A stretch of 64,000 nucleotides of DNA, taken from positions 400,291 through 464,290 of the forward strand of contig NZ_DF976999.1 in the NCBI RefSeq assembly GCF_001485475.2, written 5' to 3'. Below are positions 46,075 through 61,333 of the stretch, one piece after another. Position numbers and translations under genes: made by a program. The notes under the pieces are model-generated. The model searched no databases and was not told the DNA's origin. It was given only the letters and a program-made list of their open reading frames with translations. Each line of letters starts with the position of its first letter. Position 1 is the stretch's first letter. The DNA is from Tepidanaerobacter syntrophicus. GTDB taxonomy: Bacteria; Bacillota; Thermosediminibacteria; Thermosediminibacterales; Tepidanaerobacteraceae.

Positions 46075-47088
46075 CTAAAATAGAATTGATGAATTTATAC
46101 TTTTTATGTCTTTACAGCCTGTAAGAATCATGGCTTGCTTTAGCTCATTTGCCATGGTTTCCAGCACCAACTGCACACCTTCGGCGGCGCCGCCAAAAGC
46201 ACCGATGATGACAGGTCTTCCTACAAGCACTGCATCAGCGCCAAGGGCAAGGTATTTTAATACATCGGTGCCTGAGCGCACTCCTCCATCTGCAAGAATC
46301 GTAATCTTACCTTTCAACTTTCGGGCTATATCAGGAAGGACTTGGGCTGTGCCGGGGGTGCTGTCCAGTATCCGCCCGCCGTGGTTTGATACAACTATTG
46401 CAGCAGCGCCTGCTTCTTTGGCAAGTTCTGCTTCATCTGTTGTCATGATGCCCTTTACTATAAATGGCAGAGAAACCGATGAAATGATTTCTTTTAATTC
46501 ATCTACGTTTTTAGGGCTTACCGGCTGGCCCATTAAAGCCATGGTTACAAGTCCTGCTCCGTCAATATCCATGCCTACCGCAGGTGCCTTTATTTTTTCG
46601 GCCTGTTTTGCCATTTCGATTATTTTTGGGTTTTCTCTAGGCTTTATAATCGGAATCCCATGGCCTTCGGCTTCTTGAATCGCTTCGATTCCGGATGTGT
46701 AAAATACGGGATTTCCTCCGTCGCCGCACATGCCAACAGTTCCGGCATTCTTACTCCCTGATATTACCATACGAATGTACTCCGCCTCCGGCACAGCTCC
46801 GCCCATATTGTATTCAGAGCCGGTTATAGGCGCTGATAAAATCGGCATTGAAAGGTCTATACCTAAGATGTTTGTAGAAATATCAGGATCCTTCGCATCG
46901 TGTATCGTCCTAAGATTAAGTTTTACATCGGCAAGAGCCTTAACATTTGCCGTAAAAGCTGAACCTGTGCCTATTCCGCCCATCCCGGGCACTTCGCCGG
47001 CGCATGCTATCCCATCGCAAGTTTTACATACCCTACAGTAGCCTTTCATCTTTTCTCGAGCCGCTTGTCTTATTTCTTTAAGATTCAC
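46075..47088 (-). CDS. FMN-dependent alpha-hydroxyacid dehydrogenase-like protein with N-terminal Cys cluster
   Basis: A 337-aa TIM-barrel flavoprotein. SAPITGSEYNMGG, VKGIMTTDEAELAKEAGA, the active-site VSNHGGR and the FMN phosphate site LADGGVRSGTDV are visible. Members oxidise L-lactate, glycolate or mandelate. Before the barrel there is a four-cysteine cluster C18-x2-C21-x2-C24-x4-C29, not usual in the family, which could bind an Fe-S cluster. GTG 47088 is chosen because GGGGG lies 8 nt upstream; a TTG at 47103 has no site. It is the last gene of the catabolic operon. Confidence 0.82.
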   Translation of the reverse strand: MNLKEIRQAAREKMKGYCRVCKTCDGIACAGEVPGMGGIGTGSAFTANVKALADVKLNLRTIHDAKDPDISTNILGIDLSMPILSAPITGSEYNMGGAVPEAEYIRMVISGSKNAGTVGMCGDGGNPVFYTSGIEAIQEAEGHGIPIIKPRENPKIIEMAKQAEKIKAPAVGMDIDGAGLVTMALMGQPVSPKNVDELKEIISSVSLPFIVKGIMTTDEAELAKEAGAAAIVVSNHGGRILDSTPGTAQVLPDIARKLKGKITILADGGVRSGTDVLKYLALGADAVLVGRPVIIGAFGGAAEGVQLVLETMANELKQAMILTGCKDIKSINSSILF

Positions 47089-47160
47089 TTTTATTGCCCC
47101 CAATTTATGTGTGATTAATATTATGCATATGTCAACTTATTTTACTTCGACATAAGGAGG

Positions 47161-47532
47161 CTATTTTCCTTCAAGTTCTTCTTGCCAGTGTTCAACTATT
47201 CCTTTTGGAGAATAGCAAAACAGCATTATCATGTCTTCGTTTGAGGTATTTTCCAGAAGATGGGTAGAATCGGAGTCAATGTAGATATAGTCTCCGGCTT
47301 TTATATCAGCGGTTTCATCATTTACGTGTATTTTGCCATTTCCCCTTAATATAACATATACTTCTTCTTGATGATGCAGGTGAAGGGGAACAGAACCTTG
47401 AGGGAAAATCGTCACATAACCCATTACAAAGCCTTCCGCCTCTATCGGAGCTCCGGGACCTACCATTACCCGAGTAAGCCTTCCTGCCGGAAACTTTGTG
47501 CCTGTAATATCAAAGATATTGTTTATCTTCAC
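47161..47532 (-). CDS. Single-domain cupin
   Basis: A 123-aa beta-barrel protein. The first cupin motif is LHLHHQEEVYVILRGNG (two or three His and one Glu as metal ligands) and the second is THLLENTSNED with the last His. Small cupins of this kind can be isomerases, epimerases, lyases or sugar-binding sensors. It sits between the fucose-isomerase-like and FMN dehydrogenase genes, so a step on a sugar or sugar acid is likely; the reaction is unknown. Confidence 0.85.
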   Translation of the reverse strand: MKINNIFDITGTKFPAGRLTRVMVGPGAPIEAEGFVMGYVTIFPQGSVPLHLHHQEEVYVILRGNGKIHVNDETADIKAGDYIYIDSDSTHLLENTSNEDMIMLFCYSPKGIVEHWQEELEGK

Positions 47533-47550
47533 AGCAGCCGCCTCCCATAT

Positions 47551-48876
47551 CTATTTTAAAACTTTCAAGCCTAATAGTTTTCCTACCTCTGTCAGTTGCC
47601 TTTCCCAGTTTCCAAAGGTTACAATCTGATGACACCCAAGAAGATTGTCGATGAAACTGCTCATGGAGTCCGGCTTTATTCGAAGCTGAGTTCGGCAGAT
47701 AGGGGTAGGAGGTGTATCAAGAGTTATACCTGTGCTTACAGAAAGGGAGCTTAGATTATTTCCTATGCGGGTTATGGTTACGGGAACTCCTTCTTCTATG
47801 AGTGCCTCAGGACTTACGCCGATACCGCTTTCATGGTGATTTCTCAAGATATAAGGAAGGGGCTTGCCTTCTAAAAGAAGAGGCGAAGTACAGTGAGAAA
47901 GTCTTAAGACATCATTTTTTTCAAGCATCGGATTTGCCATCCAGGATGGTTTGTCCGTAAGGGCTTTCATCATAAAAAGCGTTACCGCAGAATCCATATC
48001 CCCTTCGCAAGCGCCGATGAAATCCCTGCTGTCGTTTAACATACTTAAAGCAATACAGCTTGTGGTGCCAAGATCCCTTAAAAGTGTAAAACATGCTATG
48101 GCTATGCCATCGCCGTTGTATTTGCGCACCAGCTGATAAATCGCTACTGCAAGTCTGGAAGCTGCAAGGATGTCTTGTTTTTTAGGCTCAATGATTTCTT
48201 TTGCGTTTTCTATCCATTTATTCGAAATTTGTTTTGCATCTTCATCTGTAATAGATTCATAAATCCTATATAATTCCTCTAAGGTAACGCCTATAAAATC
48301 CATGCCGGTTTTTTCTTTTATCTTCTCAAAGGATCGGCAGCTGCTTATAACCCAATCTTCTGTAACCCCTGCAAGAAGGATGACAGCTTTTTTCATCCGA
48401 TCTGCAGTCTGTATTATCTGCAATAAATCAAGTATATCGGATATCTCAAGAGACAGTGCCACAGGTTTTCCCTGCCGCTTTATAACGCTGTAGACATCTG
48501 CCGCAGCCGGCGCTGCATTTGCTTCAAGAAGCCGATAGGCAGTTTCTTGATCCAGCAGTCCCGGTTCATAAGCCGCCAATATGCCGATGCCCTCGAAACT
48601 TTCAGCAGCCTTTATCATCCATGGTTGAACAGCGCCGCTTGCCGGCACAAAAAGCCCGAATCCCTTGTGTTTCTGATTTAAAAAATTTTCCAACTCAGAA
48701 CCGCTAGTAATGCTTATATTTTCCACTATAAGTCCCGGATCGGTTTCGTGAAGAATTCCACTTATATTATTGGTGACGCTTGAAATCATTTTCTGCCTTT
48801 CCACATCATTTGGAAAGTAGCGGGGTTCTGTAAAAACTATGAGATGCAGCGGCAGACGGTATTTTAGTGCATACAT
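47551..48876 (-). CDS. L-fucose/L-arabinose isomerase-like protein
   Basis: A 441-aa protein with the outline of the divergent fucose-isomerase-like family: an N-terminal Rossmann-like part, a middle domain with SRLAVAIYQLVRKYNGDGIAI, and the C-terminal FIGACEGDMDSAVTLFMMKALTDKPSW region with the EGD metal site. True FucI enzymes are near 590 aa, so this is the short form seen in many uncharacterised sugar operons. It probably interconverts an aldose and a ketose or an inososugar. Sequence divergence prevents naming the sugar. Confidence 0.72.
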   Translation of the reverse strand: MYALKYRLPLHLIVFTEPRYFPNDVERQKMISSVTNNISGILHETDPGLIVENISITSGSELENFLNQKHKGFGLFVPASGAVQPWMIKAAESFEGIGILAAYEPGLLDQETAYRLLEANAAPAAADVYSVIKRQGKPVALSLEISDILDLLQIIQTADRMKKAVILLAGVTEDWVISSCRSFEKIKEKTGMDFIGVTLEELYRIYESITDEDAKQISNKWIENAKEIIEPKKQDILAASRLAVAIYQLVRKYNGDGIAIACFTLLRDLGTTSCIALSMLNDSRDFIGACEGDMDSAVTLFMMKALTDKPSWMANPMLEKNDVLRLSHCTSPLLLEGKPLPYILRNHHESGIGVSPEALIEEGVPVTITRIGNNLSSLSVSTGITLDTPPTPICRTQLRIKPDSMSSFIDNLLGCHQIVTFGNWERQLTEVGKLLGLKVLK

Positions 48877-48896
48877 TTTATCACTCCAAACAGGCT

Positions 48897-50858
48897 TTAA
48901 TATATATTGCCATTTTCCCTATAGCTTCTCCAGACATTTTCAAAAAAGTCTTCATCCTTTGGAAGGGGTCGAACTTTTCGCCAGTTAAATTCACATTCTC
49001 CATTTTTGTATATTCCTTCCTGAACCATATCTCCGATAGTGCCGTCGTCTAGAGTAAATCTAAAGACATCAGGGAGGCTTTCATAAGGCTTTATACCGTC
49101 TTTGTCGGTATAAAGAGCTGAGCCTCGGCTTTTCCCACCGTATTTTATATAATCTTCCATGGCTCTCAAGTAAACATACTGGCTCAAAAGCATATCATAA
49201 AGGCGATAGGCCCTTGGAAGCTCTCTATAAGAAGAAATCTTTACAATCTCCTTGAAACTCTTAAGTTCGTTTTTTGTTTCTGCCGCAGCTTGAACAATTT
49301 CCTCCATGCTGCGTATAATTCCTCCAAATCGGCTCATCCGTTTTGCAGCCCTATTCCAAATTTCATTTACGGTATCGCTGTTTGAAAGAAGCTTACCGCC
49401 CAAGCCGATAGAGTCTGCAATAGCCGGCAATGCTTTCTTTATAAATTCCTCTATATACGGCGCATCGCCTTTCCGATTTGCTGCAATATACTGAGCCGCC
49501 CTGGTTGAACCTACCTGGCCGGCATTTAGCGCTGTGCCTCCCGGCCTATATACTCCGTGGCTTGCACTAACCTCTCCCACTGCAAAAAACCCTTCGATAT
49601 TCGTCTGCCACCAATTATCAATCGAAAGCCCGCCGTTATTGTGCTGAGCGCATACGGCAACTTCTAAAGGCTCTTTTGCAAGGTCTACGCCTTTTCCCCT
49701 GTAAAACTCTACAGCGGGTTCGTTCATATGAAGAAGTCTGTCTATAGGTTTTCCGAAGGCTGCTCCGGCCTTTTCCAAGTAATCCCTTGCCTCCGGCGAA
49801 AGAGTGCTAAAATCTATATCGGCTCCTGCCGGATTTTGCCTAAAGTCGAGAAAAACCCTTCGCCCTTTAATGCAAGTTTCTATATACACTAAAATATCTA
49901 TAATAGATGAACCGTCTTCTACCTTCCTTACATCAAAAGGCCATTGATAGCCTTTTAGAAACACCTTTGATAGCATGTCTGCTTTATCTGCAAAAAAGTC
50001 AAGCAAAAATTCTCTTTCATCGCCGCCATTTTTATCTTGTGAGATAAATCGCGGCAGTGCCTGCATATAAGTGCCTGATACATTCCACCTGGGCTTTACT
50101 GATGATATGCCATACTGCCACTCCGTAAGGTTTTTCCCCATGATGCCTGCTTCAAAGGCAATGCCTGATGCTCCTTTTTGGCTGAAGGGATAAACCGCAT
50201 CTGCATACATGCCGGCAGGACCTCCTGTGGCATAAATAACATTTTTACAATTAAAAAGCACGTATCTTTTATCGGGGTCGTGAAGGTTCTGAAGGTCCAG
50301 GCATAAAAGGCCTAACAACTTATTTTTGTCAGTAAGGATTTTAATTACTTGCATCTTGTCAAAAATCCTGATATTTTTTTGCTTTACTGCCTTTTCAAGG
50401 CACTCTGTCATATATTTTGAGGTATAAGGACCTGCTGATGTGGCTCGCCTCTTTGGGTCATGATCTGTTTTGTAGCCGATATATTCCCCATATCTGTTGT
50501 GAGGAAAAGGAACCCCCAGCTCCGCCAGTTTCAAAAAGCACCTTGCGGAAAGCGCTGCCTCACAAAGGGCTATATCTCCATCTACGCATTGGCCGTTAAA
50601 TAGGGTTTTTGCAAGGTCATATACCGAATCCGGCTCACTGCCTGCAAGGGTCAGCTTGTAATAGGTTTGTTTGTCAGAACCTGTATTGCGCGATGTGCCT
50701 GCTTTTAAGTTTTCTGTAATTATCGCAATATCGGTCTGGCCCAAAGAAAACAGCCTGTCTGCCGCATTAAGACCTGCAGCCCCTGTGCCGACCACCGCTG
50801 TATTAAGCGAATAAATTCTGATACCATGGCCGTTTGCCCTAATAGACGATTCCTTCAT
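48897..50858 (-). CDS. Fumarate reductase/succinate dehydrogenase-type flavoprotein
   Basis: A 653-aa FAD enzyme. The dinucleotide motif AVVGTGAAGLNAA (GTGAAG 24-29), the SRNTGSDKQTYYK loop, the FHP-like capping domain and GEVSASHGVYRPGGTALNAGQV are present. No partner Fe-S or membrane subunit is nearby, so it is not a respiratory complex. In this sugar-type operon it may reduce or oxidise a C=C or C-OH bond of an intermediate. ATG 50858 has GAGGGAATG upstream; a GTG seven codons earlier is less likely. Confidence 0.83.
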   Translation of the reverse strand: MKESSIRANGHGIRIYSLNTAVVGTGAAGLNAADRLFSLGQTDIAIITENLKAGTSRNTGSDKQTYYKLTLAGSEPDSVYDLAKTLFNGQCVDGDIALCEAALSARCFLKLAELGVPFPHNRYGEYIGYKTDHDPKRRATSAGPYTSKYMTECLEKAVKQKNIRIFDKMQVIKILTDKNKLLGLLCLDLQNLHDPDKRYVLFNCKNVIYATGGPAGMYADAVYPFSQKGASGIAFEAGIMGKNLTEWQYGISSVKPRWNVSGTYMQALPRFISQDKNGGDEREFLLDFFADKADMLSKVFLKGYQWPFDVRKVEDGSSIIDILVYIETCIKGRRVFLDFRQNPAGADIDFSTLSPEARDYLEKAGAAFGKPIDRLLHMNEPAVEFYRGKGVDLAKEPLEVAVCAQHNNGGLSIDNWWQTNIEGFFAVGEVSASHGVYRPGGTALNAGQVGSTRAAQYIAANRKGDAPYIEEFIKKALPAIADSIGLGGKLLSNSDTVNEIWNRAAKRMSRFGGIIRSMEEIVQAAAETKNELKSFKEIVKISSYRELPRAYRLYDMLLSQYVYLRAMEDYIKYGGKSRGSALYTDKDGIKPYESLPDVFRFTLDDGTIGDMVQEGIYKNGECEFNWRKVRPLPKDEDFFENVWRSYRENGNIY

Positions 50859-50890
50859 AACATTCCCTCGCTTTTTCACGCTTTACTTTT

Positions 50891-51658
50891 TTACAGCCTC
50901 TGGATATGAAATCCGCCATCCACATCAATATAGCTGCCGGTTGTGTATAAAAACTTGCCGGAGCAAAAGGCCGAAACCGCCTGTGCCACATCTTCCGGCA
51001 AGCCCCAGCGTTTAATCGGAAAAAGTCCCTGTTCAATAAGCTTATCGTATTTTTCTTTTGCCTGAGCAGTCATTTCCGTAGCTATAACGCCGGGCCTTAC
51101 TTCATATACAAATACAGCCTCATCTGCCAGTCGATCGGCATATAGTTTTGTAAGCATTGAAACTCCCGCTTTAGAAATGCAGTATTCTCCTCTATTTGTA
51201 GAAGAAACCGTCGCAGAGCAGGAAGATATATTTACAATTATGCCTCTTTTGGATTCTACTATGTCTTGCTTTATCATCTGTTTTGCCACAAGCTGTGTCA
51301 TAAACATAGTGCCCTTTGTATTTATTCCCACAACCCTGTCAAAGCTTTCTTCAGTCATCTCAAGAAGATCTCGGCGCACAGCAGGAGCCACGCCGGCATT
51401 GTTTACCAACACATCTATCCTTCCAAATTTTGAAACGGTTTCCTCTACACATCTTTGCCTGTCTTGGGGGCTGTCAATTCCGCCTTGAATATAAAGATAG
51501 TTAATGCCTTCCGCTAAAAGAATGTCAAGATTTGACTTATATGCCTCTTTGGGGCTTCTGCCCAGTATCACAACATCATATCCGTCTTTGCCCAGCTGAT
51601 GGGCTATTGCAAAACCTATTCCACGGCCTCCGCCTGTAACAATCGCTGTTTTTGCCAT
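50891..51658 (-). CDS. Short-chain dehydrogenase (FabG-like) of the catabolic operon
   Basis: A 255-aa classical SDR with TGGGRGIG near the N-terminus, NNAG, the NISSCSA serine, YCISK (Tyr-x3-Lys) and VDGGFHIQ at the end. It differs clearly from the SDR at 1915-2682. Its operon partners suggest oxidation of a secondary alcohol on a sugar, sugar acid or cyclitol with NAD(P). ATG 51658 follows AAGGAG by 7 nt. Confidence 0.9.
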   Translation of the reverse strand: MAKTAIVTGGGRGIGFAIAHQLGKDGYDVVILGRSPKEAYKSNLDILLAEGINYLYIQGGIDSPQDRQRCVEETVSKFGRIDVLVNNAGVAPAVRRDLLEMTEESFDRVVGINTKGTMFMTQLVAKQMIKQDIVESKRGIIVNISSCSATVSSTNRGEYCISKAGVSMLTKLYADRLADEAVFVYEVRPGVIATEMTAQAKEKYDKLIEQGLFPIKRWGLPEDVAQAVSAFCSGKFLYTTGSYIDVDGGFHIQRL

Positions 51659-51681
51659 ACGCATACTCCTTTTGAATAAAT

Positions 51682-52710
51682 TTATGGATTTAAAACAATC
51701 TTTATTGAATTTGAGTTTCTGTCCAGTGCTGTTTCAAGGGCCTGCTGTAAGTCTTCCAACTTGAATTTATGTGTTATGAGGCTTTTAAGGTCAATTTGCT
51801 GCGACATTTCAAGAGCTACCGGGAAATCCCAGCAATAGCCTTGAGACCCCTGGACTTTTATTTCGTGAGTTATGAAGCGGGATGCAGGAATGGTTATGTT
51901 TGGGTTTTCAAATATGCCGACAACTGTTGCAAGACCGTTTTTCCTAAGAGACATAAGGGCTTGATTAAATGTTGTTTCAAGACCTACACATTCAAAGGCC
52001 TTATCTATCCCGATTCCCGATGTTAAATCCTTCACGGCCTCTAATACATCTTCCCTGCCTGAATTTATGACATTTGTCGCTCCAAGTTTTAGAGCCATTT
52101 CCAAACGGCTTTTGGAAAGATCGGCAACTGTCACGCCGGTAGCTCCGTTTTTCCTGCAAAGGGCCGCAACCATCAATCCTATGGCTCCGGCACCGATTAC
52201 AAGCACCTTTTCGCCCAGCTTTATATCCGCCCTGCGCACTGCGTGAACTGCAACGGATAATGGCTCTATCAATGCTCCTTCGTCATAGGAAAGATTTGGA
52301 GGCAATTTGTAGACGAAGGGTTCCCGAACCGTAATATAGTTTGCCATGGCTCCGTCTCCCATGCGGTAGGTAAAGCTGAGGTTTTCGCAGTAGCCGTAAT
52401 TTCCCGTTCTGCAGGCAGCGCACTTTCCACATACAACTACAGGTTCTACTGTTACTTTGTCTCCAACTTTAATATTTTCCACATCTTCCCCTACGGCTAT
52501 TACATCTCCTGAAAACTCGTGCCCTATAGTAACAGGCAGCGGCACAGTAGGGTGTTTGCCTTTAAATATATGCAGGTCGCTGCCGCAAATAGCGCTTGAG
52601 ACGATTTTTATCAGCACCTTGTCTCCTTTAGGCTCTTCGACGCTGCGTGTTATAAAATCAACCTTGCCGGGTTCTACTACTCTTCCGATCTTATTTATTA
52701 GTTGCTCCAT
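51682..52710 (-). CDS. Zinc-dependent medium-chain alcohol dehydrogenase (sorbitol/threonine/galactitol DH-like)
   Basis: A 342-aa MDR enzyme. Catalytic zinc ligands are C42, H64 and E65 (GHEFSG), structural zinc cysteines C94, C97, C100 and C108, and the NAD site is VIGAGAIGLMVA. The best-known relatives oxidise sugar alcohols or the hydroxyl of galactonate, idonate or threonine. ATG 52710 is placed 6 nt after GAGGG; a longer frame into the upstream gene was rejected. Confidence 0.92.
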   Translation of the reverse strand: MEQLINKIGRVVEPGKVDFITRSVEEPKGDKVLIKIVSSAICGSDLHIFKGKHPTVPLPVTIGHEFSGDVIAVGEDVENIKVGDKVTVEPVVVCGKCAACRTGNYGYCENLSFTYRMGDGAMANYITVREPFVYKLPPNLSYDEGALIEPLSVAVHAVRRADIKLGEKVLVIGAGAIGLMVAALCRKNGATGVTVADLSKSRLEMALKLGATNVINSGREDVLEAVKDLTSGIGIDKAFECVGLETTFNQALMSLRKNGLATVVGIFENPNITIPASRFITHEIKVQGSQGYCWDFPVALEMSQQIDLKSLITHKFKLEDLQQALETALDRNSNSIKIVLNP

Positions 52711-52723: not shown

Positions 52724-54082
52724 CTATTTTTTTGAGGCGTTTTTTCTTGCCTCATTATATAGCGGCAAATAAACCTGGCTGTCGCGCATAACGCAACCGG
52801 TGCGGCCATGGTCCCGCATTATCTGGGTGCATTTGCTGCAGGTAATACAGCACTTATTAGGCTCCATCCTGCCTTTTGTAAGGATATCCCTCGGCGCATC
52901 AGGATACGCAATAGCTTGGCGCCCTAACCCCATCATACCGCAGGCTCCCTCTAGAAGATTTGCGGCGCCTGCATAGGGTAAAAACCAGCGAAGCCAAGTA
53001 TAGCCGCTGCCGATAACCGGAATATCTTTTGCCTCTCTTTGCACTTGGCGGGTAAGCTCAAATAACCGGGCAACGCTTTCAAGGGGATGCTCTTCCGGCA
53101 TTTCTCCTCCTATGACAGGGGTATCAAAGGGCCTTGTTACATAAACTGCTTTGTAGTAAGGGTTCCCTGCTGAGCTTCCTAAAAGATTTACACCGCTTTC
53201 GATCATCTTTCGAACCAATTTTAAAGGCTCTGTCAAGTCAGGTTTCATGTAATTTTCCCTGTCTACGCCAAAACCATAAGGATAAGGATGGGCGTCAAAT
53301 ACATTGAACCTGGAAGCCACTATAAAATCATCGCCAACCTTTTCTCGAACGGCTTTTATTGTGTTTAGGATAAATCGGGTGCGGTTTTCGAAGGAGCCTC
53401 CGTATTTGCCCTCTCGCATATGGCTTGCGGCAAGTTCCGATAGTAAGTATCTGTGGCAGGATTTTATATCAACACCGTCAAATCCTGCCTCTTTTGCAAG
53501 GAGGGCGGATTCTACATATTTTTGGGTAAGATTGTCAAAGTACTCATCAGATAGAACCGGCGCATCAGGCGATAGGCCTACCGTAGGGTCCAGCATAGGA
53601 TCGTGCTGAGGGATCATAGGCGCCGGAAGATCATCAGGTCTTGAGTATCTTCCCGAATGGGTAAGTTGGAGAATTTTGACCGGTCTGTGGCCTGCGCCAT
53701 TTCCTTCTGCTGCTGCTCTATCGGTTTCTTTTACAAGTTCGGCAAATTCTTTAACATTATCTTTTGTAAGAAACATCTGAAGGGGATTCGCTCTGCCTTC
53801 ATGGACTACCGCACAGGCTTCGAACCAGATAAGTCCCGCCCCTCCAGAGGCAAAGCGCCTGTACCGCCGCCTTACCAAATCCGATGGGCTGCCGTCTCTA
53901 TTGCTGTCACAGCCTTCCATAGGTAATATTGCAATAGAGTTTGGCGCAGTAAGATGCCCGACTTTAACGGGTTTTGCCAGGGGCGACAGGTCTTCGCTAA
54001 GTTTTATATTAACTTCGAGTTCTTCAATCTTTCTTTTTAAGTCATCTATTGTCTTGAAATTAAATCTTTCAAAAGATGCCAT
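52724..54082 (-). CDS. Old-yellow-enzyme family flavoprotein with Fe-S cysteines (dienoyl-CoA reductase N-half-like)
   Basis: A 452-aa TIM-barrel FMN protein. LQLTHSGRYSRP, DGVDIKSCHRYLLSELAA and YGGSFENRTRF are the family segments, with His/Tyr substrate-binding residues. Near the C-terminus CCITCSKC and, 11 residues on, TGC match the four cysteines that bind [4Fe-4S] in 2,4-dienoyl-CoA reductase. The NADH-binding C-terminal half of that enzyme is missing, so electrons must come from another protein. It probably reduces an enone or similar intermediate. Confidence 0.85.
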   Translation of the reverse strand: MASFERFNFKTIDDLKRKIEELEVNIKLSEDLSPLAKPVKVGHLTAPNSIAILPMEGCDSNRDGSPSDLVRRRYRRFASGGAGLIWFEACAVVHEGRANPLQMFLTKDNVKEFAELVKETDRAAAEGNGAGHRPVKILQLTHSGRYSRPDDLPAPMIPQHDPMLDPTVGLSPDAPVLSDEYFDNLTQKYVESALLAKEAGFDGVDIKSCHRYLLSELAASHMREGKYGGSFENRTRFILNTIKAVREKVGDDFIVASRFNVFDAHPYPYGFGVDRENYMKPDLTEPLKLVRKMIESGVNLLGSSAGNPYYKAVYVTRPFDTPVIGGEMPEEHPLESVARLFELTRQVQREAKDIPVIGSGYTWLRWFLPYAGAANLLEGACGMMGLGRQAIAYPDAPRDILTKGRMEPNKCCITCSKCTQIMRDHGRTGCVMRDSQVYLPLYNEARKNASKK

Positions 54083-54094: not shown

Positions 54095-55750
54095 CTAATC
54101 CCAAAACATCGTTGCGCCTTTATGGGCCGATGTAGTGTTTTCTCTGTAAAGCTTCAGCCAACCTGAGGCAGGTTTTTGAACAGGCTTCCAAAGACTCTTT
54201 CTTTTTGTGAATTCCTCATCGGTTATTTCGGCTGTCAAAATTCGCTTTGTTATGTCTATATGAATGATGTCGCCATCATGTATTAGCGCAATATTCCCGC
54301 CGTCATAGGCTTCTGGAGACACATGGCCTATGGCAAGGCCGCCTGTCGCTCCTGAAAATCTGCCGTCAGTTACAAGGGCTATCTTGGTACCAAGACCCTT
54401 TCCCAGCACTGCTGCCATAAATGTCTCCATATGAGGCATTCCCGGCGATCCCTTTGGCCCTTCGTAGCGTATGATTACTACATTTCCCGGAACAATTTCA
54501 TCTTTTAAAATCGCCTCCCAGGCTTCATCCTGGGAATTATATACCTTAGCAGGACCGGTAAATTCCCATGCGGCTTTATCTACTGCTGAAAACTTCACGA
54601 TAGCGCTTTCAGTTGCTATATTGCCGGAAAGCACTGCAAGGCCGCCCTGCTCATATATTGGGCTTTTGACAGATTTTATTACATCCTTATTTAGATTTTT
54701 CGAAAGCTTTATCTTATCGGCTATAGTGCCGAACATGCCCTTTGCATCGGTATTTATCAAACCGCTTTCCGCAAGCTCTGCAAGAACGGCGCCAAGTCCT
54801 CCGGCAGCAGAAAAATCTGCCATAGTGTAGGTGGGATGATTTGGATAAATAGCGCTGATAACAGGAACCTTGCGGCTTATCTTATCAAAAAGCTCAGGAG
54901 TTATATCTATATGGGCCTGTCGCGCCATGGCAGGTATATGGAGGATTGAATTGGTAGACCCTCCTGTTGCCATCATGTATCTTACCACATTTTCAAAGTT
55001 TTCCTGTTTTATGATATCAAGAGGCCTTATTTCATCTTTTACAAGTTCTACGATTCTGTGGGCAGCGGCAAGCCCCATTGCGCGCCATTCCTCTGTCTGA
55101 GATTTCACGCTGGCATTGCCGTGGGGAGAAAGGCCTAAGATTTCAGCAGTAGCGCACATGGTATTGGCAGTTCCCATAAAGGGGCAAACGCCCGGAGTGG
55201 GGCATGCGTTTTTTACTATTTCTCTATAGTCTTTTTCTTCAATATCTCCTGCCACATATGCCGCATAAGCCTGCTTGGTATGTGTAAGAGTTATCATCTT
55301 TCCGTTATAACAACCGGGCTCCATAAAACCGCCGGTGAACATAACTGTAGGGATATTCACCCTAAGCGCACCCATAATCATACCCGGCACCACTTTGTCG
55401 CAGCTTCCTAGGAGTATCATCCCTTCCAGCATATTCACTTCTGCAACTGTTTCAACTTCCGATGAAACAAGGTCCCTTGCAGGAAGGGTGTATCGGTCTC
55501 CCGGTGTGTTTGAACAAATGCCGTCACATATTCCGCTTATGGGAAGCTCAAGTCCTAAGCCGCCTGCCGCATAAATTTCTTTTTTAATTTCAGGCACTAT
55601 CTCCTTGAAGGGGTAATGCCCCGGATTCATTTCATTCCATGCATTGATGATGCCGATTATCGGCCGTCTTACATCTTCCTCGGATACGCCCATAGCAAAA
55701 AGCAGTGCATTTCGGTGATCCAGGGATTCTCTGTTCCATTTACGAATCAT
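54095..55750 (-). CDS. IlvD/Edd-family dehydratase (sugar acid or dihydroxy-acid dehydratase)
   Basis: A 551-aa Fe-S dehydratase. C117 in [10 protein letters not shown] and C189 in [15 protein letters not shown] are cluster ligands. The first-position segment reads NPGHYPF as in oxygen-labile E. coli IlvD rather than PCN as in [2Fe-2S] relatives. Position beside kdgK, eda and sugar dehydrogenases argues for dehydration of an aldonate to a 2-keto-3-deoxy acid rather than valine/isoleucine synthesis; no other ilv gene is near. Substrate unknown. Confidence 0.85.
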
Positions 55751-55775: not shown

Positions 55776-56474
55776 TTAACCTCCAAGATATGCCTTTTTA
55801 ACCTCCTCAGAATTTAGCAGTTCGCAGCCAGTGCCTGTAAGTTTTATCCTCCCGTTTTCTATAACATAGGCTCTATCGCATATATTCAACGCTTTTCGTG
55901 CATTTTGTTCAACTAGTAGGACTGTAACTCCGCTTTCGCGAATTTGCTCGATGAGATTATAAACTTGATTTACCACAAGAGGCGCAAGTCCGAGGGACGG
56001 CTCATCAAGAAGTATCAGCTTTGGATTTGACATAAGACCTCGGGCAATTGCCAGCATTTGCTGCTCACCGCCGGAAAGTGTGCCGGCGAATTGGTTTTTT
56101 CGGTCTTTTAAGATAGGAAAAAGTTCATAGTTCTTTCTTAAGTTTTCCTGAAGCTCTTTTCCGCTGAGCAAGTAGCCTCCTACCAGTAAGTTTTCTTCTA
56201 CGGTAAGCCCTGAAAAAACTCGGCGTCCTTCAGGAACATGGACAACACCTTTTTTTACTACTTTATGAGGCACAGAAGGAAGAGGCTCGCCTAAAAACAT
56301 TATTTTTCCGGAAACAGGCTTTAACTGACCGCTGATGCAGCGCAAAAGGGTAGTCTTTCCTGCTCCGTTGGATCCTATGATGCTTACTATCTGCCCCTGC
56401 TGCGCTTCAACGGTAACATCTTTTAATGCTTCAATGTATCCGTAACTTGCGCTTAAGTTTTCGACTTTTAGCAT
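55776..56474 (-). CDS. livF: Branched-chain-type ABC transporter ATPase (LivF-like)
   Basis: A 232-aa ATPase with Walker A GSNGAGKTT, signature LSGGEQQMLAIARG, Walker B LILLDEPSLGLAPL and the short LivF C-terminus ending KKAYLGG. It overlaps livG by 7 nt. The liv family also imports urea, amides and aromatic or sugar-like acids, so the substrate need not be an amino acid. Confidence 0.93.
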   Translation of the reverse strand: MLKVENLSASYGYIEALKDVTVEAQQGQIVSIIGSNGAGKTTLLRCISGQLKPVSGKIMFLGEPLPSVPHKVVKKGVVHVPEGRRVFSGLTVEENLLVGGYLLSGKELQENLRKNYELFPILKDRKNQFAGTLSGGEQQMLAIARGLMSNPKLILLDEPSLGLAPLVVNQVYNLIEQIRESGVTVLLVEQNARKALNICDRAYVIENGRIKLTGTGCELLNSEEVKKAYLGG

Positions 56475-57238
56475 TCCGCATCCTCCTCTCCCAGATACGC
56501 CTCAATAACTTCCGGATTTGATCTGACTTCATCCGGCGTGCCTACCGCAATGGTCTTGCCAAAGTTTAAAACATAGATTTTATGGGAAATCCCCATAACA
56601 AGTTCCAATCTGTGCTCAATGAGTAAAACCGCAAAACCCAGCTCAGAGCACAGTCTGCCAATAAGTTCGGTCAGCTCTTTGACTTCTGTAGGGTTAAGGC
56701 CGGCTGCCGGTTCGTCTAAAAGCAGGACTTTCGGCTGGCAGGTAAGAGCGCGAGCGATTTCCAGGCGCCTTTGCAAGCCATATGGCAGGCTTTCCGGTTT
56801 TTCATTGGCATATTTTTTAAGTCCTACTACCTCAAGATTATGCTCGCAGATTTTGCGGCCGCGCTTTTCTTCGGCAAAGCGCCTGGGAGTAGGCAGCAAG
56901 CCATCAAAAATCGAGTAATTGGCTCTTGGATCAAAGGCACACATCACATTTTCCATAACATTTAGCCCTTTAAAAAGCCGGATGTTCTGAAATGTCCGAG
57001 AAATACCTTCTCTTGTTATCTGGTGCTGCTCCATATTCGTTATATCTTTTCCATCTAAAAAAACTTTGCCTTGATCTGCCCGGTAAATGCCGGATATGAC
57101 ATTAAAGGTGGTTGTCTTGCCTGCGCCATTGGGACCGATTATTCCTACGATATCTCCTTTATCCGCAGTTAGGGAGAAGTCTTGGATAGCTTTAACTCCG
57201 CCAAAACTTTTGCTGATATTTTGTACCTCAAGCAGCAT
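56468..57238 (-). CDS. livG: Branched-chain-type ABC transporter ATPase (LivG-like)
   Basis: A 256-aa ATPase with Walker A GPNGAGKTT, the long LivG insert after the Q-loop (TFQNIRLFKGLNVMENV), Walker B VLLLDEPAAGLNPTE, the H-loop region LLIEHRLELVMG and the C-terminal EAYLGEED. It overlaps livM by 11 nt. The signature motif is YGLQRRLEIARAL, a known variant in LivG proteins. Confidence 0.93.
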   Translation of the reverse strand: MLLEVQNISKSFGGVKAIQDFSLTADKGDIVGIIGPNGAGKTTTFNVISGIYRADQGKVFLDGKDITNMEQHQITREGISRTFQNIRLFKGLNVMENVMCAFDPRANYSIFDGLLPTPRRFAEEKRGRKICEHNLEVVGLKKYANEKPESLPYGLQRRLEIARALTCQPKVLLLDEPAAGLNPTEVKELTELIGRLCSELGFAVLLIEHRLELVMGISHKIYVLNFGKTIAVGTPDEVRSNPEVIEAYLGEEDAEC

Positions 57239-58085
57239 TTTTCTTCTCCCTCCCTATTCCAAGGCTTTTTAATGAAAGTTCGTACTCGCCGAACAGGCCT
57301 GCAGGCTTAAAGTTGATTATGAGCAGCACTAAGATAGAATAGAACACAGTTCTGTATTCTGCCGCAAACCTGAGCATTTCAGGCAGGGCTGTAAGAATTG
57401 CTGTGCCGATTATGGAGCCGGTAAGACTGTTGACTCCTCCAAAAAATACCATGATGACCCATTCGGCGCTTTTCTTCCACCCGAAAATTCCGGGATCTAC
57501 ATATGTTGTATAAAAAGCATACAAAACACCGGCATAAGCGGTAACTGCAACGGAAAACAAAAATGCTATCATCTTTATTCTCGCCACATCTATACCCATG
57601 GCTTTTGCGGCAAGTTCGTCGCTTTTTGCGGCTATGCACTGTCTACCATATTTTGATGCTTTAAAATAGGCTACAAGGGCGATGCATACTGCTGCAGAGG
57701 CCACTGCCAGAGTAAATGTGGTCTTTTGAGGAATTCCGGAAAATCCTAAGGCTCCACCGGTTATAGACTGCATTTGATTCAAAAGTGCTGTTATGGCTTC
57801 GCCAAAGCCTAACGTGACAAGAGATATATAGTCGCGGCGAAGGCGAACGGTAGGCAGCCCCACAATATATCCCACAAGGACACTAAGCGCAATTGCTATT
57901 ATTGCCGCCAGCGCAAAAGGAAGTCCTACTTTTACCACAAGAACACCGGAAATATAGGCGCCAATCGCCATAAATGCCGCTTGGCCCAAGGAAAACATGC
58001 CGGTAAGGCCTGTTAGAACATAAACGCCTGTAACAGCTATAACAGATATTAATGTGAAAGTCATTACTGAAAGATAAAATTCCAT
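57228..58085 (-). CDS. livM: Branched-chain-type ABC transporter permease (LivM-like)
   Basis: A 285-aa membrane protein of the BPD_transp_2 family with about eight hydrophobic helices; the GMFSLGQAAFMAIGAY and EWVIMVFFGGVNSLTGSIIG segments are typical for LivM. It pairs with LivH 11 nt upstream in the operon. Confidence 0.93.
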   Translation of the reverse strand: MEFYLSVMTFTLISVIAVTGVYVLTGLTGMFSLGQAAFMAIGAYISGVLVVKVGLPFALAAIIAIALSVLVGYIVGLPTVRLRRDYISLVTLGFGEAITALLNQMQSITGGALGFSGIPQKTTFTLAVASAAVCIALVAYFKASKYGRQCIAAKSDELAAKAMGIDVARIKMIAFLFSVAVTAYAGVLYAFYTTYVDPGIFGWKKSAEWVIMVFFGGVNSLTGSIIGTAILTALPEMLRFAAEYRTVFYSILVLLIINFKPAGLFGEYELSLKSLGIGREKKNAA

Positions 58086-58096
58086 ATATCCACCTC

Positions 58097-58969
58097 CTAA
58101 GCCTTTTCCTGCACGTTGGATCCGGCAATGCCCTGGGGCCTTACGAGTAGGAATACCAACATTATCAAGAATGAAAATACCGGAGCATATCCTGAACCTG
58201 CGAAGTTTATAAGGAGGGTTTCAGTAAGCCCTAAAAGCAGGGCGCCTGCAACTGCTCCAAAGACGCTGCCCAGTCCGCCGATAACCGATGCTATAAATCC
58301 TTTTACAACTAAATTTCCAAGCTGAGGATACAGGGTATAGTTAATTCCCAAAAACACACCTGCAAGGCCGGCTAGAGCACCTGAAAGGAAAAAAGCAAGT
58401 TGTATAATTCTTATCACATCTATACCCATCAGACCTGCTGTTTCCCTGTCAAAAGAGACGGAGCGGAGAGCGCGCCCGAATTTTGTCTTTTGGATAAAAA
58501 GCATTAGAAGCGCTAAAGCTGCACAAGATGAAATAAACATTATTAAATCTGATTTCGATATAACTATAGAGCCTAGTTTTACAACAGTTGTTTCAAAAAA
58601 TCTGGGGTAATTGTAGAAGTTAGGACCTACCCAAATTGTTACAATACCTTCATATAAGGTGCCCAGTGTTATAGAAGATACGAAGAAATAAATCGGCGAA
58701 GTATTGCTAAGCGTTATTTTACGAAAGGCAACGAGTTCGCCAAGGCAGGATACTAAGCCGCCTGCCAGCATTGAAATTGCTACCACCAGCAGCAGTGAAG
58801 AGTTCACTGTTACAGCAAAAAAGTAGCCGATGAAGGCGCTGAGGGTCATTAGGGCGCCATGGGAAAAGTTGGAAAACTTTAAGATATTGAATATAAGTGA
58901 AAATCCCGTAGCGATAATTGCATAAACCGATCCCAGCGCCAGTCCGTTGATTATAATCTGTAAGGACAT
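58097..58969 (-). CDS. livH: Branched-chain-type ABC transporter permease (LivH-like)
   Basis: A 290-aa membrane protein. LQIIINGLALGSVYAIIATG at the N-terminus, FSNFSHGALMTLSAF and the ATP-ase contact region GLMGIDVIRIIQLAFFLSG are family marks. ATG 58969 has GGGAGG 8 nt upstream, placed just after a strong intergenic hairpin; a frame to 58993 would start inside that hairpin. Confidence 0.93.
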   Translation of the reverse strand: MSLQIIINGLALGSVYAIIATGFSLIFNILKFSNFSHGALMTLSAFIGYFFAVTVNSSLLLVVAISMLAGGLVSCLGELVAFRKITLSNTSPIYFFVSSITLGTLYEGIVTIWVGPNFYNYPRFFETTVVKLGSIVISKSDLIMFISSCAALALLMLFIQKTKFGRALRSVSFDRETAGLMGIDVIRIIQLAFFLSGALAGLAGVFLGINYTLYPQLGNLVVKGFIASVIGGLGSVFGAVAGALLLGLTETLLINFAGSGYAPVFSFLIMLVFLLVRPQGIAGSNVQEKA

Positions 58970-58990
58970 GGATCTTTCCTCCCGATTGCT

Positions 58991-59021
58991 CAATACCCCC
59001 CTATAAAGCAGGGGGGTATTG
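58991..59021 (-). promoter_or_regulatory. Strong intergenic hairpin between binding-protein gene and livH
   Basis: An 11-bp perfect stem, CAATACCCCCC with GGGGGGTATTG, around a 9-nt loop. There is no U-run, so it is more likely an mRNA-stability or partial-attenuation element that lets the binding protein be made in excess over the permease, as in many ABC operons. Confidence 0.65.
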
Positions 59022-59045
59022 AAGTTTCATTTTAAAGCTTTATAA

Positions 59046-60248
59046 TTATTCAGATGCCGAATAGCGTTTGAGCATAACAGGAGCTTGGTTTTTGATTTCA
59101 TGCATAACCATTTCAAGACCCTTTGGCTGATGAGTTGCCGGATCAATTGTTATGGTTCCGGTTAAGCCTTCATAATTTGTAAGGTTCTCAATCGCATCCC
59201 TGATTGCTGCAGGATCGTCTCCGACTTTTTCGATTGTAGAGGCAATGATTTTCATAACATCATATCCTAAGAAGAATTTGTTTGTTGCATCATTGCCGGT
59301 TTTTTCCTTGTAAGCTGTGATAATATCTTGAATTTGAGGTTCGGTCTCAGTAATGTTGTTAATATAGATAACTCCATCTGCTTCTGGTCCGCAAAGCTTC
59401 GGGAAGGGCGGGCAAGCGTCAAGGCCGCAGATTAGCGGGCCGTTAAATCCTATTGCGCGAGCCTGCTGAACAATCAGTATAAGTTCCTGAGTATAGTTTG
59501 GTGCATATATCGCTTCAGCACCTGCGGATACCAGTTTATTCAGCATGGTTTTAAAGTCTTTGTCGTTTGGCTGGTAAGTTACTTCGCCAACGATTTGTCC
59601 TCCGTTTTCAACTGCAACTTTCTTAAAGGGTTCAACCAGTGATACTGAATAAGCATTTGACTGATTGTAGATGATACCTATTTTCTTTAAGCCTTTTTCT
59701 TTTACTGCAAACTGTGCCATGATAGCTGCCTGCTGCTTTGCAGAAGGCTGGAACAAGAACATGTTTTTGTAAGGTGTGCCGTCGTCTTTTATTGTCGCCC
59801 TGTCATCAATTGCAAAATGAAGCACCGGAATGTTGTACTGTTCAGATATTGGCGCTATGGCTATGCCGATATTTGCAACCGGAGGTCCGATTACGGCAGA
59901 GACTTTATCGGTAGTGCACATACGTTTAAATGCATTGATAGCTTCCTGGACATCAGCTTTGGTGTCATATGTTACTACTTTTATTTGGCGTCCGTTTACG
60001 CCGCCATTGGCATTAATTTCGTCAGCTGCCCATTTTGCTCCTTCCTCCACCATTTTTCCGAGAGTAGAAGTTACCCCTGTAATGTCTTGCAGACAGCCTA
60101 TGACAATGTCGCCTTTGGCTTCTTCAGTTTCCGAAGTTCCGTTTTCGCCGGTTGTTCCCGACGGAGCTTCGGTTTTTGAGCCGCCACCGCAGGCAGTCAC
60201 ACTAAAGAGCAATAAAACTGCCAACAAAAGTGCTACTATTTTTTTCAT
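59046..60248 (-). CDS. Branched-chain-type ABC transporter substrate-binding lipoprotein
   Basis: A 400-aa periplasmic-binding-protein-like I (Leu/Ile/Val-binding family) lipoprotein. The signal ends in the lipobox VTACG (lipidated C20), followed by a Gly/Thr/Glu-rich linker and the VIGCLQDITG...TLGKMVEEGAKWAADEINANG start of the mature domain. It defines what the LivHMGF importer takes up. Given the downstream sugar-acid-type enzymes, an organic acid or cyclic polyol is more likely than an amino acid, but this is inference. A clear AGGAGG precedes ATG 60248. Confidence 0.92.
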   Translation of the reverse strand: MKKIVALLLAVLLLFSVTACGGGSKTEAPSGTTGENGTSETEEAKGDIVIGCLQDITGVTSTLGKMVEEGAKWAADEINANGGVNGRQIKVVTYDTKADVQEAINAFKRMCTTDKVSAVIGPPVANIGIAIAPISEQYNIPVLHFAIDDRATIKDDGTPYKNMFLFQPSAKQQAAIMAQFAVKEKGLKKIGIIYNQSNAYSVSLVEPFKKVAVENGGQIVGEVTYQPNDKDFKTMLNKLVSAGAEAIYAPNYTQELILIVQQARAIGFNGPLICGLDACPPFPKLCGPEADGVIYINNITETEPQIQDIITAYKEKTGNDATNKFFLGYDVMKIIASTIEKVGDDPAAIRDAIENLTNYEGLTGTITIDPATHQPKGLEMVMHEIKNQAPVMLKRYSASE

Positions 60249-60328
60249 TTTCTCTTTTTCCTCCTAAAAATTTATTTTTTATTATCAATCAGCCCCTTCA
60301 AGATGGCTGACTAATAAGCATAAATTGT

Positions 60329-61333
60329 TTATCTTGTGGATTTGCGTATTATAAGTTCTGAAGGCATAATCTCCACCATTGCACCTGAGGGATTGTCTTT
60401 GCTGCAGAGCTGAAGCACCTTGCTTGCCGCTCTGGCTCCTATATCGTAGAAAGGTTGAGATACGGTGGAAAGGGGCGGGTCTATCAGAGAACTGAATTCT
60501 AAGTTATCAAAGCCGATAACCGAAATGTCGTCAGGAACTCTGAGATTGTGGTCTTTTATAGCTCTTATAGCCCCAATTGCCCTAAGGTCAGTAGTTGCAA
60601 ATACCGCATCAAACTCAATGTTTCTATTAAGTAAGCTGTTTACTGCATTATAGCCGTCAAGACTCCATTGAATACTATCAGAGTCATCGCCTGTTATAAG
60701 TTCGTATTCAATAGGTATGCCTGCATCAAGCAGTGCCTGTTTGTATCCGCTAAACCTGTCCCGGTAAAGAGCCAGCTGCTGGTTTCCTTTTACAATGGCG
60801 ATTCGCCTGTGGCCGGTCTTTATAAGGAACGAAACTGCATCATATGCCGCTTGAAAATTGTCTATTACTATCATGTTGGCTTTTATGTCAAGTTTTCTGA
60901 CTATAACTACCATAGGAAAGCCTTCTTGCTCCAGCTCTTCTAAGTGCTCGACCTTTTTTGCCGCAGGAGCGATTATAAGACCGTCCACCCATCTTTTGCG
61001 AAGTTTTTGTATGGATTCTTTTTCGATTTCTGTATCTTCGTCGGTATTACACAATATTACTGTATATCCGTATTTTCTTGCCACATCTTCCACGCCTCTT
61101 GCTATAACAGGATATATCGGGTTTCTTATGTTTGGTATAATAAGCCCTATGGTTTTTGTTTTTCCGTCCTTGAGGCCTTGAGCAAGAAAGTTCGGGCGGT
61201 AATTTAAACTTTTTACCGCTGCCATTACCTTTTCTTTTGTATCTTCAGCAACCACGTCGCTGCCGTTTAGAACTCTAGAAACAGTGCTGGGTGAAACTCC
61301 CGCTTTTTTTGCAACTTCTTTTATTGTTACCAT
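60329..61333 (-). CDS. LacI-family transcriptional regulator
   Basis: A 334-aa repressor with a helix-turn-helix and hinge (VTIKEVAKKAGVSPSTVSRVLNG and YRPNFLAQGLK, residues 2-60) and a sugar-binding type I periplasmic-protein core (61-334). It lies between kdgK-eda and the liv/catabolic genes on the same strand. A SigA-like promoter and two GAAAACGTTT dyads lie upstream, so it probably represses itself and the genes after it. A weak hairpin (60287-60312) follows its stop without a U-run, so read-through to the liv genes is plausible. Confidence 0.93.
   Translation of the reverse strand: MVTIKEVAKKAGVSPSTVSRVLNGSDVVAEDTKEKVMAAVKSLNYRPNFLAQGLKDGKTKTIGLIIPNIRNPIYPVIARGVEDVARKYGYTVILCNTDEDTEIEKESIQKLRKRWVDGLIIAPAAKKVEHLEELEQEGFPMVVIVRKLDIKANMIVIDNFQAAYDAVSFLIKTGHRRIAIVKGNQQLALYRDRFSGYKQALLDAGIPIEYELITGDDSDSIQWSLDGYNAVNSLLNRNIEFDAVFATTDLRAIGAIRAIKDHNLRVPDDISVIGFDNLEFSSLIDPPLSTVSQPFYDIGARAASKVLQLCSKDNPSGAMVEIMPSELIIRKSTR

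What the first reader, a model, noticed from the sequence alone, without database searches (positions are those of the whole stretch)
46075..61333. Uncharacterised 13-gene catabolic operon joining a Liv importer to sugar-acid and ene-reductase type enzymes
The run includes Liv importer, IlvD/Edd dehydratase, OYE-type Fe-S flavoprotein lacking the NADH domain, Zn-ADH, SDR, FrdA-type flavoprotein without partner subunits, fucose-isomerase-like protein, cupin and FMN hydroxyacid dehydrogenase, with LacI control and neighbouring eda-kdgK. I know no described pathway with this set. Three flavoproteins in one sugar-type operon suggest redox steps on a cyclic or unsaturated substrate (for example a cyclitol, quinate-like acid or keto-glycoside) ending in 2-keto-3-deoxy acid cleavage.
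Basis: inference. Interest (0 to 1): 0.82.

Follow-up and report, generated by a model that had tools for sequence, protein, structure and literature searches.

The report
Widespread flavoenzyme module for sugar acids
This bacterial operon puts an uptake system next to a three-enzyme set (two flavin enzymes and a dehydrogenase) that recurs in the same order in many other bacteria, and it likely turns an unidentified sugar acid into a standard breakdown intermediate by a predicted redox route that I did not find described.

Summary
In detail: 14 same-strand genes (46075-61333) encode a Liv-type importer, LacI, an IlvD dehydratase, an Fe-S Old Yellow Enzyme (OYE) without NADH domain, Zn-ADH, SDR, a FrdA-like flavoprotein, a fucose/arabinose-isomerase-fold protein, a cupin and an FMN hydroxyacid dehydrogenase; eda and kdgK lie just upstream. 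Neighbourhoods cut it into modules. OYE-SDR-FrdA is a conserved core, in that order in 67 of 80 named loci; IlvD (23 of 80) always comes with Zn-ADH. In 398 same-phylum genomes, 27 of 28 OYE genomes also have FrdA, though in 9 of the 27 on another contig. Of 16 FrdA genomes without OYE, 10 have a different FMN/4Fe-4S protein (dihydropyrimidine-dehydrogenase type); 0 of 28 OYE genomes have it. FrdA-like has the complex-II fold but has lost the fumarate-reductase Arg and His residues; OYE keeps its Fe-S cysteines and Tyr but has Lys/His where NemA has His/His. Best reading: a sugar-acid pathway ending in KDG in which the two incomplete flavoproteins work as a redox-balanced pair (inferred). Substrate unknown: lyase-derived unsaturated uronates and Thermotoga-type inositol ring opening were tested and not supported.

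The parts
62742..63404 (-). eda, KHG/KDPG aldolase
   Evidence: NCBIfam PRK06552 294.7 bits, cut-off 238; same order in L027, L028, L173
61690..62715 (-). kdgK-type sugar-acid kinase
   Evidence: best NCBIfam hit: kinase part of KHG/KDPG aldolase/sugar kinase fusion 597 bits (cut-off 700); KDG/KDGal kinase 249 bits, cut-off 440
61393..61408 (.). LacI-type operator-like palindrome TTGGAAACGTTTTCAA upstream of the LacI gene
   Evidence: similar sites 3723 in L027 and 2643 in L052, just upstream of the SBP gene; binding untested
60329..61333 (-). LacI-family regulator
   Evidence: Pfam LacI and Peripla_BP_1
59046..60248 (-). Liv-type substrate-binding protein (Peripla_BP_6)
   Evidence: closest solved structure 3td9 132 bits
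58097..58993 (-). LivH-type permease
   Evidence: NCBIfam 118 bits, below cut-off 379
57228..58085 (-). LivM-type permease
   Evidence: NCBIfam 149 bits, below cut-off 366
56468..57238 (-). LivG-type ATPase
   Evidence: 293 bits, below cut-off 362
55776..56474 (-). LivF-type ATPase
   Evidence: 283 bits, below cut-off 441
54095..55750 (-). IlvD/EDD dehydratase, predicted hexonate (gluconate-type) dehydratase
   Evidence: ILVD_EDD 357 bits; TIGR00110 ilvD 593.3 bits, just below cut-off 618; with OYE and ADH in 23 of 80 loci
52724..54082 (-). OYE-family FMN protein with one 4Fe-4S site, no NADH domain
   Evidence: Oxidored_FMN 101 bits, only domain found; C412/C415/C418/C430, K207 and H210 each in 70 of 70 rows, Y212 in 69 of 70
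51682..52710 (-). zinc alcohol dehydrogenase (start moved to the internal ATG)
   Evidence: ADH_N and ADH_zinc_N; Tdh 242, IolM 217, L-idonate 5-DH 166 bits, all below cut-off
50891..51664 (-). SDR of the PRK12745 family
   Evidence: 333 bits, above cut-off 250; N115, S148, Y161, K165 conserved at 97% or more of 58 rows
48897..50879 (-). FrdA-like FAD protein with changed active site
47551..48876 (-). aldose-isomerase-fold protein (fucose/arabinose isomerase fold)
47161..47532 (-). cupin
   Evidence: Cupin_2 62.8 bits; also in L026, L027, L028, L078, L158, L170, L172, L173
46075..47103 (-). FMN-dependent 2-hydroxyacid dehydrogenase-like protein
   Evidence: FMN_dh 223 bits; next best match in the own genome only 25% identical, E 5e-4

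Best explanation
The run is a LacI-linked operon built round a conserved OYE-SDR-FrdA-like enzyme set, which is predicted to rebuild an imported sugar acid so that the IlvD-type dehydratase, and likely KdgK and Eda next door, can take it through 2-keto-3-deoxygluconate (KDG) to pyruvate and glyceraldehyde 3-phosphate. Shown by sequence: operon, module structure, co-occurrence, folds, active-site changes. Inferred: the Liv importer brings in the acid. The FrdA-like FAD protein (no Fe-S or quinone partner in the operon) would take two hydrogens from the sugar acid. The Fe-S OYE (no NADH domain) would put two electrons back into a C=C or enol formed on the way, so the two half-enzymes would balance each other; a dihydropyrimidine-dehydrogenase-type FMN/Fe-S protein would do OYE's job in some relatives. 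Zn-ADH and SDR would likewise be an oxidising/reducing pair at another carbon (compare L-idonate to 5-ketogluconate to gluconate). The isomerase-fold protein, or an AP_endonuc_2 epimerase in relatives, would supply the ketose or epimer, and IlvD would dehydrate the hexonate to KDG.
For: Order OYE-(ADH)-SDR-(cupin)-FrdA among matched genes in 67 of 80 named loci. FrdA in 27 of 28 OYE-positive genomes and in 43 of 398 overall; Fisher p 1e-29, not corrected for relatedness. The stand-in FMN/Fe-S protein is at least 53% identical in 10 of 16 FrdA-only genomes (six of the ten one genus) and absent at that level in 28 of 28 OYE genomes; within about 0.7 kb of FrdA in 9 of the 10. OYE (L098) and the stand-in (L210) both also occur fused to the same Fer4_20/NAD(P)H module, so they look like equivalent reductases. 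eda or kdgK in 16 of 101 FrdA loci (L134 repeats L028), including operons without IlvD (L150, L155) and L173 in the window's own family, against 0 of 20 arbitrary 20-kb stretches from six genomes. IlvD always with ADH, 23 of 23. OYE has K207/H210, FrdA keeps R445: room for an anionic substrate.
Against: No substrate or activity is known. FrdA-like proteins lack the Arg that serves as acid/base in fumarate reductase (Ser in 60 of 64 rows) and two His positions, so desaturation by the usual mechanism is not assured. Of the 27 genomes with both genes, the best FrdA match lies on another contig than OYE in 9 and about 9-11 kb away in 2 (G368, G375). Six of 16 FrdA-only genomes have neither OYE nor the close stand-in. 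FrdA also occurs in G037, whose stand-in carries its own NAD(P)H module, in G064 and G105, whose OYE frames are long (885 and 918 aa; domains not checked), and beside a full-length OYE (L170), so it is not needed merely as electron donor. No OYE-FrdA fusion among the 120 best of 7996 FrdA relatives. The eda/kdgK background sample is small, and 85 of 101 loci show neither gene.
Confidence: 0.45

Rival explanations
1. The enzymes act in one sugar-acid pathway but are not coupled: the Fe-S OYE is a ferredoxin-fed enoate/enone reductase that serves as electron sink, and the FrdA-like protein is an independent sugar-acid dehydrogenase passing electrons to an unknown carrier.
For: A fused stand-in carries an NAD(P)H module while FrdA is still in that genome (G037); L170 has a full-length OYE beside FrdA; in 9 of 27 genomes OYE and the best FrdA match are on different contigs.
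Against: Near-obligate co-occurrence (27 of 28) and OYE/stand-in exclusion in FrdA genomes; in the stand-in operons the matched stretches of the two genes are 8-16 nt apart or overlap in 7 of 9 cases.
Confidence: 0.27
2. The module removes a substituent from uronic acids, for example the 4-O-methyl ether of 4-O-methylglucuronate from xylan: FrdA-like desaturation beside the carboxylate makes a labile enol ether, water replaces methanol, OYE saturates the bond again.
For: Glycosidases of plant cell-wall type stand beside some copies: GH43, GH39, and Hepar_II_III proteins; a methyltransferase of the MtaA/CmuA kind in L030, L031, L135, L137, L138, L147, L174 (only the L030 copy was scanned).
Against: No direct evidence for methyl removal; the methyltransferase is in few loci (2 of 80 named) and I noticed no corrinoid protein but did not search for one; FrdA has lost the usual acid/base Arg.
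Confidence: 0.1
3. Cyclitol pathway of the Thermotoga type: inosose oxidation by IolM-like Zn-ADH, ring opening, epimerisation, then KDG.
For: Zn-ADH scores 217 bits to IolM; the relatives' epimerase 117 bits to IolO; two Gfo/Idh neighbours hit inositol 2-dehydrogenase first.
Against: All below their cut-offs; ring-opening IolN (taken as DUF4438 from recall; the control rang in Thermotoga maritima) in 3 of 31 genomes and not in the window's genome.
Confidence: 0.07
4. Alternative route for lyase-made unsaturated uronates to KDG in place of KduI/KduD.
For: Hepar_II_III neighbours in a few loci; products would enter KDG without a dehydratase, as in L150 and L155; FrdA genomes are enriched in GH88/GH105 (12 of 43, p 8e-6; six of the 12 are one genus).
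Against: GH88/GH105 in only 4 of 28 OYE genomes (29 of 398 overall, p 0.14), none in the window's genome; the KduI/IolB family is in 10 of 28 OYE genomes (74 of 398 overall, p 0.02) and in the window's genome, so it is not missing there.
Confidence: 0.05

Closest known systems
Bacterial hexuronate isomerase pathway (UxaC, UxaB/UxuB, UxaA/UxuA, KdgK, Eda)
   Same: isomerase, NAD-dependent reductase, dehydratase, KDG, KdgK, Eda logic (pathway as in passages of PMC6353982)
   Different: Liv importer; IlvD and an arabinose-isomerase-fold protein in place of the usual enzymes; two flavoproteins. No word beginning with 'flav' occurs in that review's main text
L-idonate / 5-ketogluconate route to gluconate
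   Same: a Zn-ADH plus an SDR that together would invert C5, then gluconate
   Different: both score below the L-idonate 5-dehydrogenase and gluconate 5-dehydrogenase cut-offs; gluconate would be dehydrated, not phosphorylated; flavoproteins have no counterpart (fungal route: abstract of PMC5814732)
2-enoate reductase / BaiCD / FadH class of OYE
   Same: Oxidored_FMN barrel, 4Fe-4S cysteines, conserved Tyr
   Different: no FAD/NAD(P)H domain; K207/H210 where NemA aligns His/His and FadH Met/Glu; BaiCD 68.7 bits against cut-off 825
Dihydropyrimidine dehydrogenase (PreA/PreT)
   Same: the fused stand-in (L210) has its domains: DHO_dh, Fer4_20, Pyr_redox
   Different: the window has OYE in that place; whether pyrimidine genes lie near the stand-in was not searched
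Complex II flavoprotein (FrdA/SdhA/NadB)
   Different: catalytic Arg, two His and the FAD-linking His position not kept; no FrdB-type subunit in the operon

Membership tests
Fumarate reductase / succinate dehydrogenase / aspartate oxidase flavoprotein | complex-II flavoprotein fold | tested here: met
Fumarate reductase / succinate dehydrogenase / aspartate oxidase flavoprotein | catalytic Arg (E. coli FrdA gene-product R288, NadB R290) and substrate His | tested here: not met
   R to S324 (Ser in 60 of 64), H233 to G257 (64 of 64), H356 to Q412 (64 of 64) in a sequence alignment; residue roles recalled
OYE | FMN barrel (Oxidored_FMN); four Fe-S cysteines of the enoate-reductase class | tested here: met
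   Pfam; cysteines in 70 of 70 rows
OYE | His/His or His/Asn carbonyl-binding pair of classical OYEs (recalled) | tested here: not met
   K207/H210 in 70 of 70 rows; NemA His/His; FadH, itself an OYE of the Fe-S class, aligns Met/Glu, so the pair does not define that class
2-enoate reductase / FadH class | C-terminal FAD/NAD(P)H domain | tested here: not met
   452 aa, only Oxidored_FMN found
IlvD/EDD dehydratase | both ILVD_EDD domains | tested here: met
   357 and 244 bits
IlvD/EDD dehydratase | substrate is a hexonate | not testable with these tools
   needs assay; ilvD equivalog model just missed (593.3 against 618)
L-fucose / L-arabinose isomerase | fold over full length | tested here: met
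Sulfoquinovose isomerase SftI | NCBIfam equivalog cut-off 700 bits | tested here: not met
   33 bits
KDG exit (KdgK-Eda) | KDPG aldolase and KDG-type kinase beside the operon | tested here: met
   eda above cut-off; kinase in the KDG kinase family but under equivalog cut-offs
Hexuronate isomerase pathway | UxaC, UxuB/UxaB and UxuA/UxaA in the operon | tested here: not met
   none among the families found for the 17 proteins scanned; rest of the genome not searched for them
Thermotoga inositol pathway | ring-opening IolN (DUF4438) | tested here: not met
   0 in the window's genome, 3 of 31 genomes

The most novel reading that the evidence does not exclude
Two 'half' flavoenzymes form a redox-neutral pair that edits sugar acids: the FrdA-like FAD protein desaturates the bond next to the carboxylate, the substituent on the neighbouring carbon is exchanged or inverted, and the Fe-S OYE (or a dihydropyrimidine-dehydrogenase-type barrel) saturates it again. 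This would give anaerobes a way to strip ethers such as 4-O-methyl from uronic acids, or to epimerise unreactive sugar carbons, without oxygen, radicals or net NADH.
Probability: 0.1. Interest if true: 0.87.

Novelty: new variant of a known kind. Interest (0 to 1): 0.62.

Why it matters
The OYE and FrdA-like proteins have many relatives that their sources name only 'NADH:flavin oxidoreductase', 'FAD-binding protein' or succinate dehydrogenase/fumarate reductase flavoprotein (the capped lists show 120 each, at 64% and 61% identity or more). That they form one module with a KDG exit, and that OYE appears replaceable by a dihydropyrimidine-dehydrogenase-type protein, gives both a concrete, testable function class and points to an unrecognised route for modified sugar acids in Clostridia, Spirochaetes and others, several of them by title from rumen or rectum samples.

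Tried and rejected
Unsaturated uronates: OYE genomes are not enriched in GH88/GH105 and KduI/IolB-family genes are not missing from them; FrdA genomes are enriched in GH88/GH105 (12 of 43, p 8e-6), six of the 12 from one genus. Thermotoga-type inositol route: IolN in 3 of 31 genomes. FrdA only as electron donor of OYE: weakened by the fused stand-in and by L170. Sulfoquinovose isomerase: 33 bits against 700. Bile-acid type OYE: BaiCD 68.7 against 825. Literature: eight searches, seen as listings, gave no paper on this gene set; one search gave none at all. Subscription papers and supplements were not searched. The Caldicellulosiruptor regulon paper PMC8579813 was seen as passages; its main text does not hold the words flavoprotein, dihydroorotate or fumarate reductase. 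PMC6353982 and PMC4428132 were seen as passages, PMC5814732 as abstract and outline. Rodionova 2013 (inositol) was seen only in a reference list; its content is recalled. The first neighbourhood table used a length-greedy ORF caller that lost genes under antisense ORFs; the counts reported come from tblastn against reference proteins.

Rows dropped or biases: the 80 named loci are the best 80 of 98 confirmed. L134-L157 were picked because they have OYE, L158-L177 because FrdA lay apart from OYE or OYE was missing, so the 101 FrdA loci are not a random sample. 'In order' means among matched genes; other genes may lie between. The twelve named loci without FrdA are L029, L038, L049, L060, L062, L072, L074, L079 and L097-L100; L029, L038, L049, L062, L072 and L097 end within about 1.5 kb of OYE. 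G383, the one OYE genome without FrdA, has OYE near a contig start. Gene names read by eye (GH105, GH112, GH51, MaoC, crotonase, MFS, pectate lyase, ferredoxin and similar) are recalled motifs, not tool results, and are not counted. The 20 background stretches were placed by hand at round coordinates in six genomes.


Full report
WHAT IS THERE. On the minus strand, read from high to low coordinates: eda (63404-62742), kdgK (62715-61690), then LacI (61333-60329), Liv-type binding protein (60248-59046), LivH, LivM, LivG, LivF, IlvD (55750-54095), OYE (54082-52724), Zn-ADH (52710-51682 if the internal ATG is used), SDR (51664-50891), FrdA-like (50879-48897), isomerase-fold protein (48876-47551), cupin (47532-47161) and FMN hydroxyacid dehydrogenase-like protein (47103-46075). 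The families are confirmed by Pfam and NCBIfam. A LacI-type palindrome lies at 61393-61408, upstream of the LacI gene, with similar sites just upstream of the binding-protein gene in L027 and L052. A terminator-like hairpin separates a ferredoxin-like ORF (63927-63556, named by eye) from eda.

WHERE ELSE IT OCCURS. A scan of named bacterial genomes with the OYE family gave 80 loci. Against reference proteins, 80 hold OYE, 68 FrdA-like, 70 SDR; the order OYE-(ADH)-SDR-(cupin)-FrdA on one strand is seen in 67. By record title they are mostly Clostridia, with Treponema and other Spirochaetes and two Lentisphaerae (L051, L059). IlvD is in 23, each time with Zn-ADH; Liv in 13; an AP_endonuc_2 protein in 25; an isomerase-fold relative in 5; kdgK or eda in 9. 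So the core is OYE-SDR-FrdA, and IlvD/Zn-ADH is a second module. The importer varies: Liv, TRAP, Tct, ribose-type and sugar ABC components all occur. The epimerase next to OYE in many Clostridia (L034 copy scanned) is related to D-psicose 3-epimerase and to 5-keto-L-gluconate epimerase, below both cut-offs.

CO-OCCURRENCE. In 398 genomes of the window's phylum, OYE (E up to 1e-80) is in 28 and FrdA-like (E up to 1e-30) in 43; 27 have both (Fisher p 1.2e-29, no correction for relatedness). In 9 of the 27 the best FrdA match is on another contig than OYE (G045, G064, G086, G105, G124, G137, G157, G186, G403), in two it is about 9-11 kb away (G368, G375), in 16 it is close by. Sixteen genomes have FrdA without OYE. 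In ten of these a DHO_dh/PreA-like protein is found at 53% identity or more, within about 0.7 kb of FrdA in nine; the copies read in L173, L175 and L177 carry two CxxCxxC motifs. No OYE genome has it at that level, best 35% (p 3e-6). Six of the ten are one genus, and six of the 16 have neither. A second, distant PreA-like family (24-27% identical) stands together with OYE in six named loci (L053, L057, L068, L069, L080, L092), so only the closer family behaves as a substitute. Both OYE (L098) and the stand-in (L210) are also found fused to the Fer4_20/Pyr_redox module known from dihydropyrimidine dehydrogenase.

EXIT. eda and/or kdgK sit beside the window operon and in L027, L028, L032, L039, L042, L078, L084, L094, L095, L139, L144, L150, L155, L173, L176: with the duplicate L134, 16 of 101 FrdA loci, against 0 of 20 arbitrary 20-kb stretches. 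In L039, L094, L095 and L176 they are on the other strand than FrdA. L150 (LacI-OYE-Gfo/Idh-Gfo/Idh-D2HDH-SDR-FrdA-eda-kdgK) and L155 show no IlvD. L173, from the window's own family, has eda-kdgK-LacI-TRAP-ADH-stand-in-cupin-FrdA, the window's layout with another importer and the stand-in for OYE; its FrdA gene reads in two overlapping frames.

MECHANISM (inferred). The recurring partners are a flavoprotein without Fe-S or quinone subunit, an FMN/Fe-S protein without NADH domain, and an NAD-dependent alcohol dehydrogenase that may be SDR, Zn-ADH or Gfo/Idh. A redox-balanced pair of flavoproteins is the reading I commit to; Zn-ADH and SDR could be a second balanced pair. Against it stand the lost Arg, the genomes in which OYE and FrdA lie apart, the fused NAD(P)H module in G037, which still has FrdA, and the full-length OYE in L170 beside FrdA, ADH, IlvD and cupin. 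Substrate: a sugar acid; which one is not settled.

COMPARISON. The known bacterial hexuronate route has isomerase, reductase, dehydratase, KdgK and Eda (passages of PMC6353982); the fungal glucuronate route has L-idonate, 5-keto-gluconate and gluconate (abstract of PMC5814732). The window resembles a mixture of both in logic but is a member of neither: UxaC and UxuA/B are not in the operon and the ADH/SDR miss the cut-offs. Eight literature searches in the open-access library gave no account of the OYE-SDR-FrdA set.

Noticed in passing
window 63556-63927: Small ferredoxin-like ORF (by eye) upstream of eda, cut off from it by a strong terminator-like hairpin (63535-63490); no NCBIfam hit at E 1e-20.
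   Followed up: no
L158 (same genus) 8652-16689 and L172: FrdA-like gene in an operon with ADH, cupin, a KduI/IolB-family protein, FadX-like CoA-transferase, crotonase- and MaoC-like genes (by eye) and an AP_endonuc_2 protein, without OYE: a possible CoA-linked variant.
   Followed up: partly
L030, L031, L135, L137, L138, L147, L174: A methyltransferase of the MtaA/CmuA kind (L030 copy 115 bits, cut-off 235) sits among the FrdA/OYE genes, hinting at methylated substrates.
   Followed up: partly
L163, L164, L165, L167: FrdA-like gene directly after what reads as an MFS transporter, away from OYE, in four related genomes that have OYE elsewhere.
   Followed up: no
L173 8774-10661: FrdA-like gene reads in two overlapping frames (121 and 529 aa). 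Described only.
   Followed up: no
L031 7557-7922 (cluster c9): 120-aa protein without Pfam or NCBIfam match; relatives in 18 of 80 named loci, often beside IlvD or kdgK/eda. Function unknown.
   Followed up: partly
window 20641-22077: IS110-family transposase gene, on the plus strand.
   Followed up: no
window 30873-30888: Second LacI-operator-like site (2 mismatches) upstream of the SBP_bac_5 gene 28854-30473.
   Followed up: no
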